A stretch of 64,000 bases of DNA from Flexilinea flocculi (GTDB lineage: Bacteria > Chloroflexota > Anaerolineae > Anaerolineales > Anaerolineaceae). Both the position numbers and the translations under genes were made by a program. This document shows, one piece after another, positions 9,731 through 44,564 of this stretch. Positions within the stretch are counted from its first letter, which is position 1. Every line of letters begins with the position of its first letter. The stretch covers positions 596,580 to 660,579 of the forward strand of contig NZ_DF968180.1 in the NCBI RefSeq assembly GCF_001192795.1, in the 5' to 3' direction. The notes under the pieces are model-generated. The model saw only the letters and a program-made list of their open reading frames with translations. It ran no database searches and was not told the DNA's origin.

Positions 9731-10690
9731 TTATGCTTTTTCTTCCTCATCAAAAATGGTTTTCGAAATTTCACGGATCACATAAAGCGGACGATTTTTT
9801 ACCTCATCATAGATTCTGCCGAGGTATTCGCCCAGAATTCCCAGACAGATGAGCTGCACACCGCCGAGAAACAGTGTGGAGATCAGGGTTGTCGTCTGTC
9901 CCATTAATTCTCTGCCGGTTGTCAGACGGATCAATATAACCACCGGAATGAGAAGGATGCTGAGTCCGGCCACAATAAAGCCCAGGTACATCGCAATTTG
10001 AAGCGGAACATACGAAAATCCTGTGATGGCATTCCAAGCCAGGCGGACCATCTTTTTCAGTGGATATTTGGTGGATCCGGCATACCGTGAAGCCCGATTA
10101 TATGGAACGCCAATCTGTTTGTAGCCGATCCATGCCGACATACCCCGCAGAAAACGATGCTTTTCACGCATGGTGTTCATAACACTCAGAACTTTACGGT
10201 CGATGAGACGAAAATCCCCCGTATCGATCGGGATTTTAACATCCGTGATTTTATAAATTAACCGGTAAAACATAGCTGCCGTTTTTGTTTTAAACCATGT
10301 TTCGCCTTCTCTGTTTTCCCGGACTGCATAAACTACTTCATAGCCCTCTTTCCATTTTTGGATCAGCTCTGTGATGACTTCCGGGGGATCCTGCAAATCC
10401 GCATCGATGATGATCACGGCATCCCCAAGCGCATGATCCATACCGGCTGTCACTGCAATCTGGTGTCCGAAATTGCGGGCAAAATGAATCACACGGATTC
10501 TGTTGTCCAGCCTGGCCAATTCATCCATTTTTTCCGGCGATCCGTCAGTTGAACCGTCATTCACCAGAATCAGCTCCCAGTTTTCTCCAGTTTGATCCAT
10601 TACAGCAGTCATTCTGGAATACAGCGGTTCCAGACACTCCATTTCATTGAATACAGGAACAATCACCGAGTATTTTGGTTTCATAAGCAC
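9731..10690 (-). CDS. GT2 family glycosyltransferase, polyprenyl-phosphate sugar synthase type (GtrB/DPM1-like)
   Basis: 319 residues. The GT-A domain (about 1-230) carries VIVPVFNE near the start and the nucleotide-sugar/metal motif IIDADLQDP near residue 95. It is followed by two transmembrane helices (about 235-260 and 270-295) and a cytosolic tail with [15 protein letters not shown], which is typical of GtrB/ArnC-type enzymes. These transfer a sugar from a nucleotide donor to a polyprenyl phosphate on the inner membrane face, feeding GT-C enzymes such as those encoded at 12.2, 56-59 and 62 kb. The start overlaps the end of the upstream threonine synthase-like gene by 10 bp, suggesting co-translation. 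Confidence 0.92.
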
Positions 10691-22825: not shown

Positions 22826-24637
22826 TTATATTGTACCTTTTCTTCCGAATTGTCGTTCCAAAAGATGAATACTTAAATGAATCATCGTAGGGCGACCATG
22901 CGGACAGGTTCTTGGTGATTGACAATTCTCTAAATCCCGGATTAATCCTCGCTGTTCCTCTTCCGATAAAGGTTGTCCGGCTTTAACAGCCATACTTTTA
23001 CAAATCCGGCCGGCAATCCTTTTTTCAATTTCAGATTGGAGCGGCGTTTCATCTTCTTCAAAATCCTCAACGATGGAACGCACAGCGGCTGCCGGATTTC
23101 CTTTTGTAAAAATTTCCGGAATTGACAGGATTCGATACGTTGCCGGACCGAATAATTCAATCCGAAATCCGAGCCTGGTCAATATATCCATGTTTTCTTC
23201 CAGCAGCGAAGTCTGCCAGGCGGATACCTGAACAATGGCGGGTTCCAGCAACGATTGAGAAGCAATTCGGGAATCAACCTGCCCCATTAACTTTTCAAAT
23301 AAAATACGTTCATGTGCCGCATGTTGATCAATCAGATAAAGTCCGTCTGGTCCTTCTGCAATGACATAGGTTCCTCCGATTTGACCGATCCAACGCAGAA
23401 TTGGAAATCCCGGGTTAATCGGGGCAGTTTGAAAATTCGACTGCGGTTGCAAGATAGCGGATGAGCTGCCCGCAGGTATAGAATTGTTGGGTGGGATTTG
23501 ATTTTGAGGTAACTCAGTTCTCCAAAATGCAACAGGTATACCTTCTGCCGGATTATCCACCACAGTCGTAAGTTCGTTGTCGTTTGATTGCGGATTTGCA
23601 GGAGCATGCCATCCAGGCCATTGTGCATTAGAATGAATTTCAGGAACGGGAGACTGAAAGATCAGGCTGCGTCGAACAGCGCGATGCACGATTCCGAATA
23701 CTTTGTCCGGAGACCGAAATCGGACTTCGGCTTTGGAGGGGTGAACATTCACATCTACTTCTTCCGGATCCATGGAGATGAATAATGCCGCGATGGGATA
23801 TCGGCCAACCATGATCAGCGACTGATATGCCCGAATGATGGCGGAATTAAGCTGGACATCCTGAATCCAGCGGCCGTTAACAAAAAAATTCATTTCTCTG
23901 CGATTGGAACGAGTCAGAGCAACCGGGCTGATAAATCCAAAAACCGAGATTCCTTCTTCTTTCAGATCGATTTCTATCAGTTTCTTTGCTATGTCAACAC
24001 CATAGATAGCTGTCAGAACTTCGCGGTAATCAGCATTTCCGGTTGTCCGGATACCCGGTTTACCATCATGTGTGCTTTGCCAGCGGATATTTGGATAAGC
24101 GAGCGCATATCTGGAGATCAGAATTTCAATCTGGTTCCGTTCCGTAACGTCACTTTTGAGAAATTTCAATCTGGCAGGAACATTGTAAAATAAATCAGTA
24201 ACTTGAACGATTGTGCCCTGTTTCGTTCCGGTTTGATGGATACCGGTGATTTTTCCACCATCCACCGTAATGGAATAACCGTTATTGCCTTCTGCAGTAC
24301 AGGTGGTTATCCGCATGCGTGAGACTGAACCGGCAGCAGCCAGCGCTTCACCACGAAATCCCAATGTATGAATATGAAATAAATCTTCTGCGTTTGTCAG
24401 TTTACTGGTTGCGTGCCGCATAACGGCTTTTTCAAGTTCATCCGATTGGATACCGCAGCCATTGTCGATAATCTCAATGATCCGTTTTCCTGCTTCTTCT
24501 GTTCGAATCATTATGGCTGATGCACCTGCATCAATCGCATTTTCGATCAGTTCCTTGACCACAGAGGCAGGTCGTTCGATGACTTCTCCTGCGGCTATCT
24601 GCGAAACTACCTCATCTGCAAGTATTCGAATGGCCAT
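22826..24637 (-). CDS. mutL: DNA mismatch repair protein MutL, endonuclease type
   Basis: 603 residues. The N-terminal GHKL ATPase (about 1-330) shows ELIENAIDAGA, DNGCGI and GFRGEAL. The C-terminal dimerisation/endonuclease domain has the metal motif DQHAAHERILFEKL and the CPHGRP motif (TCPHGRPTMIHLS), so this MutL should nick DNA itself, as expected in bacteria lacking MutH. A Pro/Asn/Gln-rich linker (about 345-400) separates the domains. GAGGAGAGG precedes the ATG. No mutS lies in the window. Confidence 0.96.
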   Translation of the reverse strand: MAIRILADEVVSQIAAGEVIERPASVVKELIENAIDAGASAIMIRTEEAGKRIIEIIDNGCGIQSDELEKAVMRHATSKLTNAEDLFHIHTLGFRGEALAAAGSVSRMRITTCTAEGNNGYSITVDGGKITGIHQTGTKQGTIVQVTDLFYNVPARLKFLKSDVTERNQIEILISRYALAYPNIRWQSTHDGKPGIRTTGNADYREVLTAIYGVDIAKKLIEIDLKEEGISVFGFISPVALTRSNRREMNFFVNGRWIQDVQLNSAIIRAYQSLIMVGRYPIAALFISMDPEEVDVNVHPSKAEVRFRSPDKVFGIVHRAVRRSLIFQSPVPEIHSNAQWPGWHAPANPQSNDNELTTVVDNPAEGIPVAFWRTELPQNQIPPNNSIPAGSSSAILQPQSNFQTAPINPGFPILRWIGQIGGTYVIAEGPDGLYLIDQHAAHERILFEKLMGQVDSRIASQSLLEPAIVQVSAWQTSLLEENMDILTRLGFRIELFGPATYRILSIPEIFTKGNPAAAVRSIVEDFEEDETPLQSEIEKRIAGRICKSMAVKAGQPLSEEEQRGLIRDLENCQSPRTCPHGRPTMIHLSIHLLERQFGRKGTI

Positions 24638-25152
24638 CAGCCTCTCCTCTGATAATTCGAAATATGCTCATCATTACAAGGGCTTTTCCTAATTTCGAAT
24701 TAATACTTTTGATAAGATTATAATCGTTGCACATCTATTTCAAAAAACGGCGATTCGAAAAACGGGTATTTTTTATTATTGTATCGTTTTTGCGCATCAC
24801 GCAAAAACGATACAATAATAAAAAATAAACGATGGATTGAAAGATTGGACTTCCTATCCGAACGATAGAAATATCATCACCTGTTTGACAGAATTCACAA
24901 CCGGATGAAATTTTGTCATTTTTTTTATCTGTTGCGCGAAAACTTATCATCCTCCTTAATTTTTGATGATATTCTTCCTATATCGCCAGCAGATTATTCG
25001 TAGTACTAATTAAATATCGAATGACATGAACGGATTCCGGATCCTCCCGTGTTTTTGAACAGTTCATAATTATTTTCTTTCAGACTGTCATCCGGAAAAT
25101 CGTTCTGTTAAATTTTCCCAGTTTTATTGATTTATGAAAAGAGGAAATTAAT
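24638..25152. other. Intergenic region between mutL and the peptide precursor gene
   Basis: Contains a short element-like pair of ATTCGAAAT/ATTTCGAAT termini (24650-24700), the long perfect hairpin at 24767-24827 and about 200 bp of AT-rich leader before 25153. No further gene seen. Confidence 0.6.
24748..24860. repeat. Interspersed element with a perfect 28-bp inverted repeat
   Basis: The left end CGGCGATTCGAAAA is at 24748. The hairpin arms at 24767-24794 and 24800-24827 are perfectly complementary over 28 bp, with a 5-nt loop CATCA and the apex TTTTTGCG/CGCAAAAA. The right terminus is diverged (TATCCGAACGATAG), so the outer end is approximate. This is the strongest stem of the family in this window. 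Confidence 0.75.
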
Positions 25153-25392
25153 ATGCTGTCTAAAGAAGAATTTATGAAGCAATTGTCGCAGTATAAGAAT
25201 TCAGAGGAAAGAATGGATTTCCTGGTCAGTGAAGGTTATCAACCAGATCAGAGTGAATCATTATCGGATGAAATCCTTGAAAAAATCGCCGGCGGCAGGA
25301 ATGACATTCGTAATCCGAATCCTTTGGATCCTTGCTGGTTTTGTCTTACTTATCATTTGCCATGCGGGGGTGAAGCCTGCCCTGATTATTAA
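25153..25392 (+). CDS. Orphan double-glycine leader peptide precursor (RiPP/bacteriocin-like)
   Basis: 79 residues. Residues 1-48 form an acidic, helical leader ending in LSDEILEKIAGG, which resembles Nif11/NHLP-type RiPP leaders cleaved after Gly-Gly by peptidase-containing ABC transporters. The predicted core (49-79, 31 residues) has Cys at 61, 64, 71 and 76, two of them in a CWFC pair, plus Pro and aromatic residues. AGAGGAAATT precedes the ATG, so translation is likely. No modification enzyme, C39 peptidase or transporter gene is adjacent (mutL and arcC flank it), so maturation would need enzymes encoded elsewhere. The leader-type call is pattern recognition; the product is unknown. Confidence 0.75.
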   Translation: MLSKEEFMKQLSQYKNSEERMDFLVSEGYQPDQSESLSDEILEKIAGGRNDIRNPNPLDPCWFCLTYHLPCGGEACPDY

Positions 25393-25402
25393 TCGGTTGA
25401 TT

Positions 25403-25460
25403 CCAGCAATTCGAAATATCAATAAATTTTTTTCCAAAATTCGAATCACTGAATTACTGG
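25403..25460. repeat. Short hairpin-less derivative of the interspersed element (58 bp)
   Basis: The outer ends CCAGCAATTC and GAATTACTGG are inverted, with inner AATTCGAAAT / AATTCGAAT, but there is no central hairpin. It lies 10 bp after the peptide precursor stop. Confidence 0.6.
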
Positions 25461-25504
25461 ATTGGGGAGAAGAACGGATTCTCCTTGTTATGAAATATTG
25501 AATG

Positions 25505-25543
25505 AAAAAAGTGTCTTCCTTCATCTGAAGAAGACACTTTTTT
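25505..25543. terminator. Bidirectional intrinsic terminator
   Basis: A 14-bp perfect stem (AAAAAAGTGTCTTC and its complement) with an 11-nt loop and A/T tracts on both sides. It lies between the plus-strand peptide gene and the convergent arcC. Confidence 0.88.
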
Positions 25544-25565
25544 TAACTGCATCATAAACAACAGC

Positions 25566-26522
25566 CTAAGCTGCTGTGATCATCGTTCCTGTTTCTCCCC
25601 TCAACGCACGTCCAATATTTTCTGGATTGGTAATCAGGGCTTGTTTACCGCCGGCTTCCAAGAACCAGATACAAGCTTGAATTTTGGGCGCCATTGAGCC
25701 GCTTTTGAAATGTTTGCCTTCTTTCAGATAGGCTTTTGCCTCGTCCAATGTCATCTTGTCAAGCCATTTTTGTTCCGGCGTTCCATAATTGATCGCTACC
25801 TTCTCAACTGCGGTGGAAATCAGCAGTAAATCCGCATTGATTTTTCGTGCCAGCAGACTGTTGCCAAAATCTTTGTCAATCACAGCTGAAACACCTTCCA
25901 GACTTCCATCCTCGTTTTTAATCACTGGAATACCACCGCCGCCGATTGAAATGGTAACAATTCCTGCCTGAATTAAGGCTTTAATGGCATCGAGCTCCAC
26001 AATTTCCATCGGAAGCGGGGATGCGACAACACGTCTCCATCCGCGGCCGGCATCTTCGACTACCGTCCAGCCGTCTGATTCCGCTTTGATATTGGCTTCC
26101 TCTTCCGTCATAAATCCGCCAATTGGTTTGGTCGGATGTTGAAATGCCGGGTCATTCTTGTCAACAATAGTTTGTTCCAAAACGCAGGCAACGGGCTTAT
26201 TAATGCCACGTGTTTTCAGTTCATTTTGTAGATTCTGAACCAGCATATATCCGATTTGCCCCTGGCTTTGTGCTCCGCATACATCCAGCGGTGCCATGGA
26301 GAGTCCTGCCTGTTTTTCAGCAATTTCTGCTTTTTGCAGGATGAATCCTACCTGTGGCCCATTCCCATGTCCGATTACAACTTCCCAACCGGCTTCAATC
26401 ATATCCACGATGTGCTTAGCAGTCTCTTTCGCAGCCAGATATTGATCCTGACAGGACTGATGGGCATTATCCTTGATTAATGAATTTCCGCCAATAGCGA
26501 CAACAGCAACCTTTTTTTCCAT
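25566..26522 (-). CDS. arcC: Carbamate kinase
   Basis: 318 residues, amino acid kinase fold. It transfers phosphate from carbamoyl phosphate to ADP. The N-terminal VVAIGGNSLI, GHGNGPQVG, SIGGGGIPV and DKDFGNSLLARKI blocks are characteristic, and length is standard. AAAGGG precedes the ATG. The expected partner genes arcA/arcB are not in the window; the AEC transporter follows on the same strand upstream. A role in arginine, agmatine or purine degradation cannot be chosen from the context. Confidence 0.96.
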   Translation of the reverse strand: MEKKVAVVAIGGNSLIKDNAHQSCQDQYLAAKETAKHIVDMIEAGWEVVIGHGNGPQVGFILQKAEIAEKQAGLSMAPLDVCGAQSQGQIGYMLVQNLQNELKTRGINKPVACVLEQTIVDKNDPAFQHPTKPIGGFMTEEEANIKAESDGWTVVEDAGRGWRRVVASPLPMEIVELDAIKALIQAGIVTISIGGGGIPVIKNEDGSLEGVSAVIDKDFGNSLLARKINADLLLISTAVEKVAINYGTPEQKWLDKMTLDEAKAYLKEGKHFKSGSMAPKIQACIWFLEAGGKQALITNPENIGRALRGETGTMITAA

Positions 26523-29066: not shown

Positions 29067-29654
29067 ATGTCTGTCAGATATGCAATTCTTGGACTTTTGG
29101 CACAGCATCCTAGTCACGGTTATGAGCTGCATGCTGCCATCTTGGCATTGGCTGGCGGTGGGCAAGATTGGGATTTAAAGCCTGCTCAGGTCTATACGAC
29201 GCTGAACCGATTGGAAAAAAATGGTTTCGTCCAAAAAACGGAAGTACAACAGGACGGCGGCCCCGAACGGCAGATTTATGCAATTACGGCAAATGGAAAA
29301 GAGGAATTGGCTGAATGGTTTACAAATCCGACGGTAGGGGATCATCAACGGGACGATTTTTTCTTGAAATTGATGACAGCGTTGATTTCCACAGATATTA
29401 ATCCATCGTGGATCATTCAAAAACAAAGAATGCATCTGCTTCAGGAATTGCATCGGGCAACCGCACAGCGTGATCAGTACAACCCGAAGAGCGAAATGGC
29501 ACAGATTCTCTTTCAGGATAAGATGATCATGCATTTGGAAGCTGACATCCGATGGCTTGAGATGATTGAAGTTCGATTGGAGGAAATAAAAAAGCAGCCA
29601 TTTCCCGAACCGGATGTTCGGCCAAGAGGAAGACCCAAAAAAAATACCGATTAA
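29067..29654 (+). CDS. PadR family transcriptional regulator
   Basis: 195 residues. The N-terminal winged helix (about 1-80) has MSVRYAILGLLAQHPSHGYEL and AQVYTTLNRLEKNGFV; the C-terminal part is helical with a Vir-like dimerisation domain (about 95-175) and a basic PRGRPKKN tail. PadR proteins sense small hydrophobic or toxic compounds and repress efflux genes. It lies 132 bp upstream of a MacB-like ABC exporter on the same strand, which is its probable target. Confidence 0.95.
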   Translation: MSVRYAILGLLAQHPSHGYELHAAILALAGGGQDWDLKPAQVYTTLNRLEKNGFVQKTEVQQDGGPERQIYAITANGKEELAEWFTNPTVGDHQRDDFFLKLMTALISTDINPSWIIQKQRMHLLQELHRATAQRDQYNPKSEMAQILFQDKMIMHLEADIRWLEMIEVRLEEIKKQPFPEPDVRPRGRPKKNTD

Positions 29655-29667
29655 TTTATGCAAAAGA

Positions 29668-29755
29668 ATGATTCGAAATATGGACGCGTTGCTTATTCCT
29701 GATAAAAAAACATCGCCAAGTTCAAAAAACGCATTGAAATTATGGATTACTGAAT
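29668..29755. repeat. Degenerate interspersed element without hairpin
   Basis: A left-type terminus GATTCGAAATATGG near 29670 and a right-type terminus GAAATTATGGATTACTG near 29740, with no intervening stem. It fills most of the padR-ABC gap. Confidence 0.4.
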
Positions 29756-29786
29756 ACGAAGAGGGAGTTCAAAAAAAGGAGGAAAA

Positions 29787-30530
29787 ATGTCAGTTATTCA
29801 AACTGAAAATTTAACCAAGATCTACGGGAAAAATGAGACAGCGGTAACAGCATTGGATCGCGTCAACATTCAGATTGAAGAAGGTGAGTTCGTTGCCGTA
29901 ATGGGTCCCAGTGGCTGCGGAAAATCCACATTGATGCATCTCTTAGGAGGTTTGGATAAACCGACCAGTGGAATTGTACGCATTAATCAGATCTCGATTG
30001 CTGAAATGGGCGATGATGAATTAACAAAACTGCGAAGAAGAAAGATCGGATTTGTTTTTCAGTTTTTTAATTTGATTCCTGTTTTAGATGCAGCGGAAAA
30101 CGCCGCTTTACCAATGACGCTGGATGGAATGAAACCGGATCTTGCCCGAAAGAAAGCATGTGAATGGCTGGAGCGATTCGGTATGGCAAACCGAATGAAA
30201 AATCGTCCTGATCAGCTCTCTGGCGGTCAGCAACAACGGGTTGCCATTGCGCGTGCGTTAGTAGCCGATCCGACTATCATACTCGCAGATGAACCGACCG
30301 GAAATCTGGATACGCATTCCGGGGACGAAATTGCCGGATTGCTGCGAAATGTCTCGAATGATTACAACCGAACTGTGATCATGGTTACACACGATCCAAG
30401 GATTGCTGCTTATGCCAACCGAATCATCTTTCTAAAGGATGGCAGCGTCATCGATGAAACCATACTTGAGAAAAAGAATGATAACAACGCAGGTCTGGTC
30501 GCTGACAAAATGAAGAAGATTTCAGATTAA
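29787..30530 (+). CDS. ABC transporter ATP-binding protein, MacB/LolD type
   Basis: 247 residues. Walker A GPSGCGKST, Q-loop FVFQFFNLIP, signature LSGGQQQRVAIARAL, Walker B ILADEPTGNLD and H-loop VTHDP are all present. Subfamily features (the YGKNETAVTALDRVNIQIEEGEFVAVMG start) place it with MacB/LolD/FtsE-like mechanotransmitting ATPases. An AAGGAGG site precedes the ATG. It forms a two-gene exporter with the permease 53 bp downstream. Confidence 0.95.
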   Translation: MSVIQTENLTKIYGKNETAVTALDRVNIQIEEGEFVAVMGPSGCGKSTLMHLLGGLDKPTSGIVRINQISIAEMGDDELTKLRRRKIGFVFQFFNLIPVLDAAENAALPMTLDGMKPDLARKKACEWLERFGMANRMKNRPDQLSGGQQQRVAIARALVADPTIILADEPTGNLDTHSGDEIAGLLRNVSNDYNRTVIMVTHDPRIAAYANRIIFLKDGSVIDETILEKKNDNNAGLVADKMKKISD

Positions 30531-30583
30531 AAATGAAAAAGAACTGATTAGGGTTCTTTTTAATCTTTTCGAAGGGTGATTCC

Positions 30584-33136
30584 ATGAACATACAATTTCG
30601 TTTGGCACTTCGATACTTGAGTGGCAGAAAAATGCGGACTGCTTTGACAACGCTGGCAATTGTATTCGGCGTATTAGTTATTTTTGGAATGAATATTGTT
30701 CTGCCAACAATGATCACTGCCATTAAAACCAACATCTATGCGGCTTCCGGTCAGGCAAGCTTGACGATTTCTCATATCACGGGCAATTTATTTGATCAAT
30801 CGCTGGTTGAAAATGTTTTGCCAATCAACGGCGTGCTCGCCGCAACGGGGAAAATGGTTCGGACGATCAATTTACCGAAGAATTACTTTGATCAGGACAG
30901 TGAGAAACCGGATCGCGTCTCCGTCCTGAATCTGCAAGGATTGGATCTTGATAATGTTCAATCGGTCCATTCATTTCCTTTGCAAGATGGCCGTTTTTTG
31001 CTGCCAGAAGATCGAGATGCTGTTGTCATTACGCAGTCTCTCGCGGATAAAATATCCGTAAAAATCGGGGATTCCATGCGGATCCCCACGGTTGTCGGTG
31101 AGAAACAGTTGACCGTTGTGGGGCTTCTGTTCCCGCGTACACTTCCTGGTGATGAGGACATTTTTGTAAATCTACCTTACGCGCAGGAAATCATGAACTG
31201 CTCTGGGAAAATCAACCTGATTGAAGCAAATATCGATAATTTTGAAGATCAGGGAAAACGCGATGAAGTTGTTAATGCAATCCAGGAACGGCTTGGCTTG
31301 GATTTTCAAATCGGGACATTAAACAGTAATGAAGAATTGTTAGGCGTCATGGATATGGGTCAGATGATCTTGAATATATTTGGAGTACTGGCTTTGTTTA
31401 TGGGCGCTTTTATTATTTTTAATACCTTCAGAACGATCGTTCTTGAACGGCGTTATGATATCGGTTTGCTGCGGGCTGTCGGCGCCAGCCGCAGTATGAT
31501 AACCGGTATGATCCTGATAGAAGGTTTGATTCAAGGAATCATCGGATCGCTTGCGGGTATTGTGTCAGGATATTTTTTGGGTTATGGTATTCTACGCCTG
31601 GCTCAAGAACCAATGAGCGCTTTTGTCAATATCAAGCTGGGAACTCCCGTTGTTCCTCCAGCGCTGGTTGGTATCTGTTTGCTCCTCGGTGTGTCCATCT
31701 CTGTTTTGTCCGGGTTGATTCCGGCGATCAAAGCAGCGCGCATCACGCCATTGGATGCATTGCGTCCTTCCGTTGCAGATGTCAATTACCGGAAACAAAC
31801 CGGTATCTTCTTCCTGATCGGATCCATCTTTATCGGAGTCGGAATCCTATTGCTGTTTTCCGATCAAATGTCATGGATTGCTGCAGGCGCCTTTGCTTTT
31901 CTGCTCGGACTGGTCTGTATCACGCCTGCTGTTGTTCGACCGTTTGCATTGCTGTTCGGGAAAATTATTGCCAGAATCTATCACCGTCAGGGTATTGGTG
32001 AATTAGCACAGGGAAATATGGCACGTCATCCAGGCAGAACTGCCATTACTGTCAGCGCAACGCTGCTGGGCTTGGCTGTCGCTGTTGCTGCAGGTACGCT
32101 CGTGTCCAGTGTCAGTATCTCTGTGGCAAATCTGATCAAGATATCTATGGGAAGCGATTATCTATTAGTTCCGCCTTCTGTCTCTTTATGGGGGACCAAT
32201 ATTGGTGCCAGTGCTGATTTGGAACAAAAACTGCGCGCTGTTGAGCAGGTTGATGTGGTTTCTTCACTGCGTTTTGCAGAAAGCAAGGTGAATGAAAATT
32301 CGGTTTCCGTCTTAGGAATTAATCCACATGATTATCCCTGGGCTGGCGGATTGACCTTTGTTGATGGCAGTGAATCGGATTACGATCAATTAAATGATGG
32401 CAGATCCATGTTTATTAACAGCATATTTGCCATGACTGTCGGCGCAAAAAAAGGGGATGTCATTGAATTGGCGACAACAGATGGCCGAAAACCATATCGT
32501 GTGGCAGCCGTAGTGAATGATTTATTAAATGCAAAAGTGACAACAGTTTTTATCTCTCAGAAGAATATGGAAAAAGATTTTCAAGTGACGGAAGATATTT
32601 TTATCCAGGTAAATTTGAAGGAAAATGCGGATATCAATGCTGCGGACGCCGCCATTAAAACTGCTGCATCCGGATATGATCAGTTTACAGTGATTTCAGG
32701 AAAAGAATACTCGCAATCCTTGATGAATCAACTGCAAACAGCTTTTTCGGGTTTTTACTTTTTGCTGATTTTACTGGCTGTGCCTTCTTTGCTGGCAATG
32801 TTAAACACACTGTCCATCGCCGTCATCGAACGGACACGCGAAATCGGAATGCTGCGTGCAGTGGGCGCAACAAGAAAACAAATTCGCCTGATGATGACTG
32901 TGGAAGGGCTCCTGTTGGCTGCTTTTGGAACCATATTGGGTATTTTGGGCGGGCTTTATCTGGGATTCCTTTTCGTTAAAGGGATTGGAACCTTTATGCC
33001 TTCCGAATATATTTTCCCGTTGTCCGGTGTTTTGGCTGCTCTCATTATCGGGCTGAGTTTTGGCATTTTAGCAGCTGTCATTCCATCGCGGCAGGCTGCA
33101 CGCCTGGATGTCATCAGAGCTCTGCGATACGAATGA
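30584..33136 (+). CDS. ABC transporter permease with two FtsX domains
   Basis: 850 residues. A first transmembrane helix near 20-45 is followed by a MacB-like extracytoplasmic domain (about 50-240), three helices of the first FtsX core (about 255-385), a central helix pair, a second periplasmic domain (about 500-690) and the final FtsX core (about 705-845). The ERRYDIGLLRAVGAS and ERTREIGMLRAVGAT segments are the two coupling motifs. The likely job is export of a lipophilic compound, peptide or lipoprotein. Regulation by the upstream PadR protein is probable. Confidence 0.93.
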   Translation: MNIQFRLALRYLSGRKMRTALTTLAIVFGVLVIFGMNIVLPTMITAIKTNIYAASGQASLTISHITGNLFDQSLVENVLPINGVLAATGKMVRTINLPKNYFDQDSEKPDRVSVLNLQGLDLDNVQSVHSFPLQDGRFLLPEDRDAVVITQSLADKISVKIGDSMRIPTVVGEKQLTVVGLLFPRTLPGDEDIFVNLPYAQEIMNCSGKINLIEANIDNFEDQGKRDEVVNAIQERLGLDFQIGTLNSNEELLGVMDMGQMILNIFGVLALFMGAFIIFNTFRTIVLERRYDIGLLRAVGASRSMITGMILIEGLIQGIIGSLAGIVSGYFLGYGILRLAQEPMSAFVNIKLGTPVVPPALVGICLLLGVSISVLSGLIPAIKAARITPLDALRPSVADVNYRKQTGIFFLIGSIFIGVGILLLFSDQMSWIAAGAFAFLLGLVCITPAVVRPFALLFGKIIARIYHRQGIGELAQGNMARHPGRTAITVSATLLGLAVAVAAGTLVSSVSISVANLIKISMGSDYLLVPPSVSLWGTNIGASADLEQKLRAVEQVDVVSSLRFAESKVNENSVSVLGINPHDYPWAGGLTFVDGSESDYDQLNDGRSMFINSIFAMTVGAKKGDVIELATTDGRKPYRVAAVVNDLLNAKVTTVFISQKNMEKDFQVTEDIFIQVNLKENADINAADAAIKTAASGYDQFTVISGKEYSQSLMNQLQTAFSGFYFLLILLAVPSLLAMLNTLSIAVIERTREIGMLRAVGATRKQIRLMMTVEGLLLAAFGTILGILGGLYLGFLFVKGIGTFMPSEYIFPLSGVLAALIIGLSFGILAAVIPSRQAARLDVIRALRYE

Positions 33137-33150
33137 ATCAGGAATAAATG

Positions 33151-33193
33151 TTGTTATGTTGTTTTTGCGCTTTGTGCAAAAACAACATAACAA
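33151..33193. repeat. Variable-arm hairpin, interspersed family copy
   Basis: Perfect 18-bp arms (TTGTTATGTTGTTTTTGC and complement) with a 7-nt loop GCTTTGT, starting 14 bp after the permease stop. A right-type terminus (CTCGAATAACTG) follows at about 33214. It may double as a terminator between the convergent genes. Confidence 0.7.
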
Positions 33194-44153: not shown

Positions 44154-44564
44154 CTCTTTTCTCCTTTTTGATAATTTTTAAAGGATCTCGATTCCGAATA
44201 AGCTATTTCATCGATCCTGTGGGCATTTTTTACGCACAGGAAAGATCTCATTAAATTAATTATACTCATATGAAACAGCAACAGAATCACAATTCAGCGA
44301 TTCGAAATTTGGTCAGGGTTCTTTTTTATTATGATGATGTTGCGCTTCGCGCAACATCATCATACCAACAAGTTTTATCTGATTGATAAGTTTAGTGAGT
44401 CAATATTTCGAATTGCTGATTCGAAATATAACTTTATGGTAAAGGTCCTTGTTATGAAATTATGGATCTTGCTTTCATGAAATCAGGGTCATAACTGATT
44501 TATACCGCAACGAATTCGTAATCGCACGTATAATTAAAGCAAAAACATCATCAAGGAGCTCTTC
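44154..44564. other. Divergent intergenic region upstream of gcvH
   Basis: No gene seen. It holds a complete hairpin element (44295-44418), a further CTGATTCGAAATAT terminus at 44416-44429 and TATAAT at about 44531. The paired aptamer motifs of a glycine riboswitch were not found. Confidence 0.6.
44295..44418. repeat. Complete interspersed hairpin element (124 bp)
   Basis: The left end CAGCGATTCGAAATTT (44295) and right end AATATTTCGAATTGCTG (to 44418) are inverted copies. The hairpin at 44330-44364 has perfect 16-bp arms TATGATGATGTTGCGC / GCGCAACATCATCATA with a 3-nt loop TTC. Confidence 0.8.

What the first reader, a model, noticed from the sequence alone, without database searches (positions are those of the whole stretch)
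25153..25392. Orphan double-glycine peptide precursor with a four-cysteine core
The leader ends LSDEILEKIAGG, like Nif11/NHLP RiPP leaders; the core of 31 residues has CWFC and two further Cys. A ribosome-binding site and terminator frame a monocistronic gene, but no LanM, radical SAM, cyclodehydratase or C39 transporter is adjacent. It could be modified by promiscuous enzymes encoded elsewhere, or be a secreted signal or bacteriocin.
Basis: partly seen in the sequence, partly recalled or inferred. Interest (0 to 1): 0.7.

Follow-up and report, generated by a model that had tools for sequence, protein, structure and literature searches.

The report
Orphan double-glycine peptide, distant exporter
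A small, real bacterial gene makes a peptide with a removable front part and a four-cysteine tail; no modifying enzyme was found next to it, and the machine that most likely cuts and exports it sits elsewhere in the same genome beside a second peptide of similar build.

Summary
The 79-codon gene at 25153-25392 lies in a Flexilinea-type Chloroflexota genome. It has a ribosome-binding site, a terminator-like hairpin and an 82% identical syntenic copy in Flexilinea MO118 under purifying selection (dN 0.109, dS 1.207). It is rare: 2 of 14 genus genomes; in three others mutL and arcC adjoin without it.

The genome has one detectable C39 (double-glycine) peptidase-transporter, NHLM type, on another contig. 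Beside it lies a second double-glycine precursor with a CxxC...C...CP...Y core and no modification enzyme. Both leaders show L-12, L-7, I-4, GG. YcaO, LanC and MNIO enzymes were not detected genome-wide; radical-SAM/SPASM proteins exist, but no link to the peptide was found.

Best reading: a secreted double-glycine peptide, cut and exported in trans by the single NHLM transporter, probably unmodified apart from disulfides; activity unknown (bacteriocin-like or signal).

Against a tighter claim: outside the last 14 leader residues, orphan and sister show no significant similarity, and other GG leaders of the genus match equally well. Nif11 membership fails the curated cut-off. A new member of a known kind; modest interest.

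The parts
25153..25392 (+). orphan double-glycine precursor gene (79 aa)
   Evidence: ortholog 82% identical in Flexilinea MO118, dN 0.109/dS 1.207
25153..25296 (+). leader (48 aa) ending LSDEILEKIAGG; C39 pattern L-12, L-7, I-4, G-2, G-1
   Evidence: sequence; motif comparison; sub-threshold TIGR03798; helices at 4-13, 17-26, 39-46 in a low-confidence model (mean pLDDT 63)
25297..25389 (+). core (31 aa) RNDIRNPNPLDPCWFCLTYHLPCGGEACPDY, four Cys, all kept in the ortholog
25140..25145 (+). ribosome-binding site AGAGGA, identical in the ortholog
24945..25030 (.). conserved non-coding block upstream of the gene, with inverted repeat TCATCCTCCTTAATTTTTGATGA; possible promoter or regulator site
   Evidence: pairwise alignment; one full copy in the own genome, other matches short
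25505..25543 (.). terminator-like perfect hairpin between the peptide gene and arcC, probably serving both
   Evidence: similar hairpin in L001; not listed by the consensus scan

Best explanation
The gene encodes a secreted double-glycine peptide. The 48-residue leader directs the precursor to the only C39 peptidase-ABC transporter found in the genome, an NHLM-type exporter on another contig. Its C39 domain cuts after Gly48 and the 31-residue core is exported. The core is most likely not modified by a dedicated enzyme; outside the cell its CxxC and C...CP cysteines form two disulfides (or bind a metal). The exporter has its own adjacent precursor with the same kind of four-Cys core, so this transporter probably serves at least two unlinked substrates. 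Shown: the gene, its conservation, the single detected transporter, the shared recognition motif, the genome-wide non-detection of YcaO, LanC and MNIO. Inferred: cleavage, export by that transporter, disulfides, and any antibacterial or signalling role.
For: One C39 peptidase match in the genome at E <= 0.001 (G000:C1:118146-118532, 127.7 bits). The protein is NHLM_micro_ABC1 over the curated cut-off (944 vs 853.3 bits) and matches solved bacteriocin transporters over nearly its full length (4ry2, 8vp3). Next to it lie an ABC2-like protein, a short HlyD-like protein and a second precursor ending LSETMLDAISGG with core SGNSWCTACAAANRLLHKDWICPLKNGGTCPHGYTG. The same arrangement occurs in G065, the other genome holding the orphan (its transporter also over the cut-off). 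[quoted passage not shown] LahT150 tolerates varied cores and leaders (same passages). YcaO, LanC, MNIO: 0 of 6 genomes examined, the own one included, while the same models ring in 5, 1 and 2 of 14 control genomes. Scattered precursors served by a shared system are known for prochlorosins (passages of PMC10783134).
Against: Without the last 14 leader residues orphan and sister are not detectably related (469 to 1527 of 2000 shuffles reach the score, four pairings). Core similarity is not significant (816 to 2054 of 5000, four pairings). The GG leaders of six precursors from other genus genomes match the orphan leader about as well, so the motif names a transporter class, not this transporter; the link rests on its being the only one found. 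The genome is estimated 97% complete, so a second transporter could be missing. Co-occurrence is in two close relatives only. Radical SAM/SPASM enzymes of unknown substrate exist in the genome. No expression data.
Confidence: 0.6

Rival explanations
1. A RiPP modified in trans by one of the genome's radical SAM/SPASM enzymes (for example a thioether-forming, ranthipeptide or sactipeptide-type change on Cys) before export by the C39 transporter.
For: Three SPASM matches in the own genome. In the cluster at C3, about 1498-1506 kb, three of four rSAM-type proteins have rSAM_PapB, a ranthipeptide maturase, as best NCBIfam hit (79 to 144 bits, cut-off 340). A genus relative (G103) has GG precursors of Nif11-like look beside an rSAM RiPP maturase-like protein (L036). 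Non-SPASM radical SAM proteins were not searched for.
Against: All these hits are far below cut-offs. The G103 maturase-like protein has only 22-25% identity in partial matches to the four G000 proteins compared. The rSAM cluster adjoins a Tat-signal WD40 protein, a possible substrate of its own, and I saw no GG or Cys-rich small ORF conserved with G065 there. The sister peptide at the exporter has no enzyme beside it either (by eye).
Confidence: 0.15
2. The peptide is exported by some other route (for example an exporter without C39 domain, or a C39-like peptidase not detected), or stays in the cell as a small zinc-binding protein that only resembles a GG precursor.
For: CxxC...C...C could hold a metal; no adjacent C39 exporter; the direct neighbours are housekeeping genes; an ABC exporter of another type lies 4.4 kb away (29787-33136, by eye); the genome is not fully complete.
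Against: The full C39 pattern ahead of GG; sub-threshold Nif11 leader match; narrow distribution and absence at the same site in three relatives are unlike a housekeeping zinc protein.
Confidence: 0.15
3. Non-functional relic of a larger RiPP cluster whose enzymes were lost.
For: Orphan position, no enzymes nearby; some relatives carry fuller NHLM/rSAM clusters.
Against: dN/dS about 0.09 over 79 codons; ribosome-binding site, terminator-like hairpin and upstream block kept in both species.
Confidence: 0.07

Closest known systems
NHLM (NHLP/Nif11) precursor-export systems, Haft et al. 2010 (PMC2887384, passages seen)
   Same: GG leader with LSxxxLxxI pattern; genome has NHLM ABC1 and an ABC2-like protein beside a GG precursor; genomes with many precursors are described there
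   Different: Leader below the Nif11 cut-off; no YcaO or LanC detected in the genome; orphan is on another contig; HlyD-like partner is only 162 aa and far below cut-off (28 vs 156 bits)
LahT / PCAT double-glycine transporters (PMC6363468, passages seen)
   Same: C39 domain plus ABC; substrate residues -12, -7, -4 and GG match
   Different: Lah precursors are clustered with the transporter
EbfG1-4 and PteB of Synechococcus elongatus (PMC4997328, passages seen)
   Same: Small GG proteins cleaved and secreted by a C39 transporter; the passages name no modification enzyme; role in biofilm formation
   Different: EbfG1-4 are cotranscribed and lie near pteB (one complementing fragment spans both); sequence similarity to the orphan was not tested here
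Prochlorosins (PMC10783134, passages seen)
   Same: Precursor genes scattered away from the shared machinery
   Different: Prochlorosins are lanthipeptides made by LanM; no LanC-type enzyme is detected here and the orphan core has one Thr and no Ser

Membership tests
Nif11-like leader RiPP precursor (TIGR03798 / PF07862) | curated score cut-off | tested here: not met
   TIGR03798 21.3 bits vs 32.3; PF07862 not listed for the peptide and 0 matches in the own genome
Nif11-like leader RiPP precursor (TIGR03798 / PF07862) | modification enzyme clustered with it or in the genome | tested here: inconclusive
   no SPASM, YcaO, LanC or MNIO match in the window; YcaO, LanC, MNIO not detected genome-wide; SPASM proteins present on another contig but unlinked
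Double-glycine (C39/PCAT) export substrate | leader with hydrophobic -12, -7, -4 and GG | tested here: met
   pattern from PMC6363468 passages
Double-glycine (C39/PCAT) export substrate | C39 transporter in the genome | tested here: met
   one match, NHLM_micro_ABC1 over cut-off
Double-glycine (C39/PCAT) export substrate | cleavage after GG and export | not testable with these tools
   needs protein assay or MS
Lanthipeptide | LanC/LanM cyclase | tested here: not met
   LANC_like 0 of 6 genomes; core has one Thr, no Ser
TOMM / azoline RiPP | YcaO cyclodehydratase | tested here: not met
   0 of 6 genomes
MNIO (DUF692) RiPP | MbnB/TglH-type enzyme | tested here: not met
   0 of 6 genomes
Class II bacteriocin (TIGR01847) | model match | tested here: not met
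   not listed for the orphan in a search up to E 10, where most matches above about 0.1 are filtered out; the sister scores 15.0 vs cut-off 15.7
Ranthipeptide / sactipeptide | dedicated rSAM/SPASM maturase | tested here: inconclusive
   SPASM proteins exist, best named hits far below cut-offs

The most novel reading that the evidence does not exclude
An apparently enzyme-free NHLM system in which one exporter serves two unlinked four-cysteine peptides (this orphan and the exporter's own) that work as a pair, for example as a two-peptide bacteriocin or a peptide signal, with activity set by disulfides or metal binding instead of RiPP chemistry.
Probability: 0.15. Interest if true: 0.5.

Novelty: new member of a known kind. 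Interest (0 to 1): 0.33.

Why it matters
Genome mining usually calls RiPP or bacteriocin clusters by adjacency (general knowledge). Here an NHLM exporter with no modification enzyme beside it and a precursor on another contig would be missed or misread. If the trans pairing is right, the precursor inventory of NHLM exporters in Chloroflexota is underestimated, and enzyme-free Cys-rich NHLM substrates are a testable class.

Tried and rejected
Shared hairpin as a common regulator: TGTATCGTTTTTGC hairpins precede both precursor genes, but similar hairpins recur elsewhere in the window and in other loci (33151-33193, 44330-44364, L041, L001), so they look like a dispersed family. Rfam search of 24400-25700: 22 sub-threshold hits, nearly all on that hairpin. 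Upstream block as a regulon marker: one full copy in the genome, the other 12 matches short and weak. Weak homologs of the orphan in family genomes (E 0.001-1): in the seven regions that I fetched, the matches overlapped larger genes; the other weak rows were only scanned for a GG motif where a locus was held or not opened. The weak matches of the sister search were not opened either. Core-to-core homology of orphan and sister: not significant. The CxxC..C..CP..Y plan is shared, but the expression was written after seeing both (0.24% and 0.03% of shuffles hold it; Cys spacing alone 5.7% and 5.6%). Viral contigs: no relative confirmed. PHROGs: one sub-threshold hit each (E 0.094 and 0.31); PADLOC: none. 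PDB: no useful match for the orphan (best E 0.0083 to a lysozyme chain). Positional homologs at mutL-arcC: none seen in three relatives. Structure model: low confidence (mean pLDDT 63, two sequences).

Full report
What is there. AGAGGA lies 7 nt before the start. A perfect terminator-like hairpin lies at 25505-25543, between this gene and the convergent arcC. The consensus scanner found no + strand promoter, did not list this hairpin, and listed two weaker sites inside the end of the gene.

It is a real gene. A seed scan of a collection of 84,980 species genomes gave 139 candidate stretches and one confirmed relative, Flexilinea sp. MO118 (L001), 82% identical over all 79 residues, with the same neighbours. 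That scan reaches close relatives only. The MO118 contig has the same length as G065:C44, so G065 is probably the same genome. NG86 gives dN 0.109, dS 1.207 for the whole gene; leader 0.105/1.667, core 0.115/0.824; arcC for comparison 0.018/1.197; the sister precursor 0.222/0.887 (leader 0.347/0.854, core 0.094/0.923). The YN00 method failed on the peptide genes. All four Cys and the ending ACPDY are kept. About 85 bp upstream (24945-25030) are also well conserved, more than the rest of the spacer.

Distribution. Strong matches: 2 of 101 family genomes and, with a four-sequence profile, 2 of 14 genus genomes; the next best E-values in those searches were 0.0014 and 0.0275. arcC was searched in 14 genus genomes. 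Of 17 arcC loci, 5 have mutL beside it: the two with the peptide (spacers 928 and 843 bp, the latter measured on L001) and three without (G106 299 bp, G092 191 bp, G084 206 bp from the printed coordinates). So the peptide gene is an extra at this site, gained in this pair or lost in the others.

Where the machinery is. The genome has one C39 peptidase match, on contig C1. There, on one strand, lie a second GG precursor, a 162-aa HlyD-like protein, the C39 ABC protein (TIGR03796, 944 bits, cut-off 853) and a second ABC protein (TIGR03797, 658 bits, cut-off 709). The HlyD-like protein reaches only 28 of 156 bits. I recall, from no call, that Chloroflexota lack a typical outer membrane, which would fit a short adaptor. 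By eye I saw no modification enzyme in the 20 kb read there. The same arrangement is in G065. Full-score NHLM ABC1 is rare: 5 of 400 genomes of the order are over the cut-off (loose ABC matches are in all 400, and only a few candidates per genome were scored in full). C39 matches as such are in 8 of 14 genus genomes, so the orphan is much rarer than the transporter class.

The two peptides. The exporter's own precursor ends ...KELSETMLDAISGG, with core SGNSWCTACAAANRLLHKDWICPLKNGGTCPHGYTG. Orphan and sister share L-12, L-7, I-4 and GG. [quoted passage not shown] The similarity ends there: whole-leader scores are rarely reached by shuffles (47, 1, 91 and 4 of 5000 for the four pairings), but without the last 14 residues they are reached often (469 to 1527 of 2000, four pairings), and GG leaders from other genus genomes match the orphan leader about as well. 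Core alignment is not significant (1734, 816, 2054, 1231 of 5000). The common Cys plan CxxC..C..CP..Y is suggestive but post hoc. So the trans link rests on the single detected transporter, not on kinship of the peptides.

Modification. YcaO, LANC_like and MNIO: 0 of 6 genomes including the own, with the controls ringing in 5, 1 and 2 of 14 known genomes. SPASM matches: 3 in the own genome. Two lie in a cluster of four rSAM-type proteins with a Tat-signal WD40 protein; three of the four have PapB as best named hit, below cut-off. The third SPASM match resembles NirJ/PqqE-type proteins, below cut-off. None is near the peptide. Modification by one of them stays possible, and non-SPASM radical SAM enzymes were not searched. 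The core has one Thr and no Ser, which leaves little room for lanthionine chemistry.

Function. I commit to an exported peptide with two disulfides, probably acting on other cells. Whether it kills or signals cannot be told: by eye there is no immunity-like or regulator gene directly beside it. GG peptides cleaved by a C39 transporter can serve biofilm formation (EbfG/PteB, PMC4997328, passages), and scattered precursor genes are known (PMC10783134, passages).

Literature. Seven searches. In their listings I saw no paper on such peptides in Flexilinea; PMC4289311 passages tabulate only head-to-tail cyclised peptides for six Chloroflexi strains.

Verdict. Observation confirmed; reader partly supported. 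A new member of a known kind with a useful lesson about unlinked exporters.

Noticed in passing
L037:6082-13626 (G000:C3, about 1498-1506 kb); related region in L038 (G065:C40): Cluster of four radical SAM-type proteins (three with rSAM_PapB as best hit, below cut-off), a 107-aa and a 176-aa protein of no family, and a Tat-signal WD40 beta-propeller protein directly behind; the WD40 protein might itself be the substrate.
   Followed up: partly
window 24769-24825; also 33151-33193 and 44330-44364; L041; L001:7574 and 19864: A perfect 57-bp hairpin that belongs to a dispersed family of similar hairpins with a TTTTTGCG-like arm in this genome and its relative.
   Followed up: partly
window 24945-25030; L001 about 9781-9870: Conserved non-coding block with an inverted repeat upstream of the peptide gene; one full copy in the genome.
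   Followed up: partly
L066:1459-1644 (G103), L070:1399-1581 (G105), L042:6550-6801 (G098): Other double-glycine-type small ORFs in genus relatives; the first scores NF038167 (CTB bacteriocin) and the third TIGR04149, both below cut-off. Their neighbourhoods were not studied in full.
   Followed up: partly
L035:6786-15587 (G017): NHLM-type cluster with a 259-aa protein of sub-threshold NHLP leader and long Cys-rich repeats, a CefB-like rSAM (below cut-off) and a PoyD-type epimerase (over cut-off).
   Followed up: no
L117 (G000:C2:455964-456914): Second carbamate-kinase-like gene in the own genome, 85% identical to the one beside the peptide.
   Followed up: no
window 29067-33136: By eye: a PadR-like regulator followed by an ABC ATPase and an 850-aa FtsX-like permease, an ABC exporter without C39 domain about 4.4 kb from the peptide gene; also present beside the MO118 copy.
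   Followed up: no
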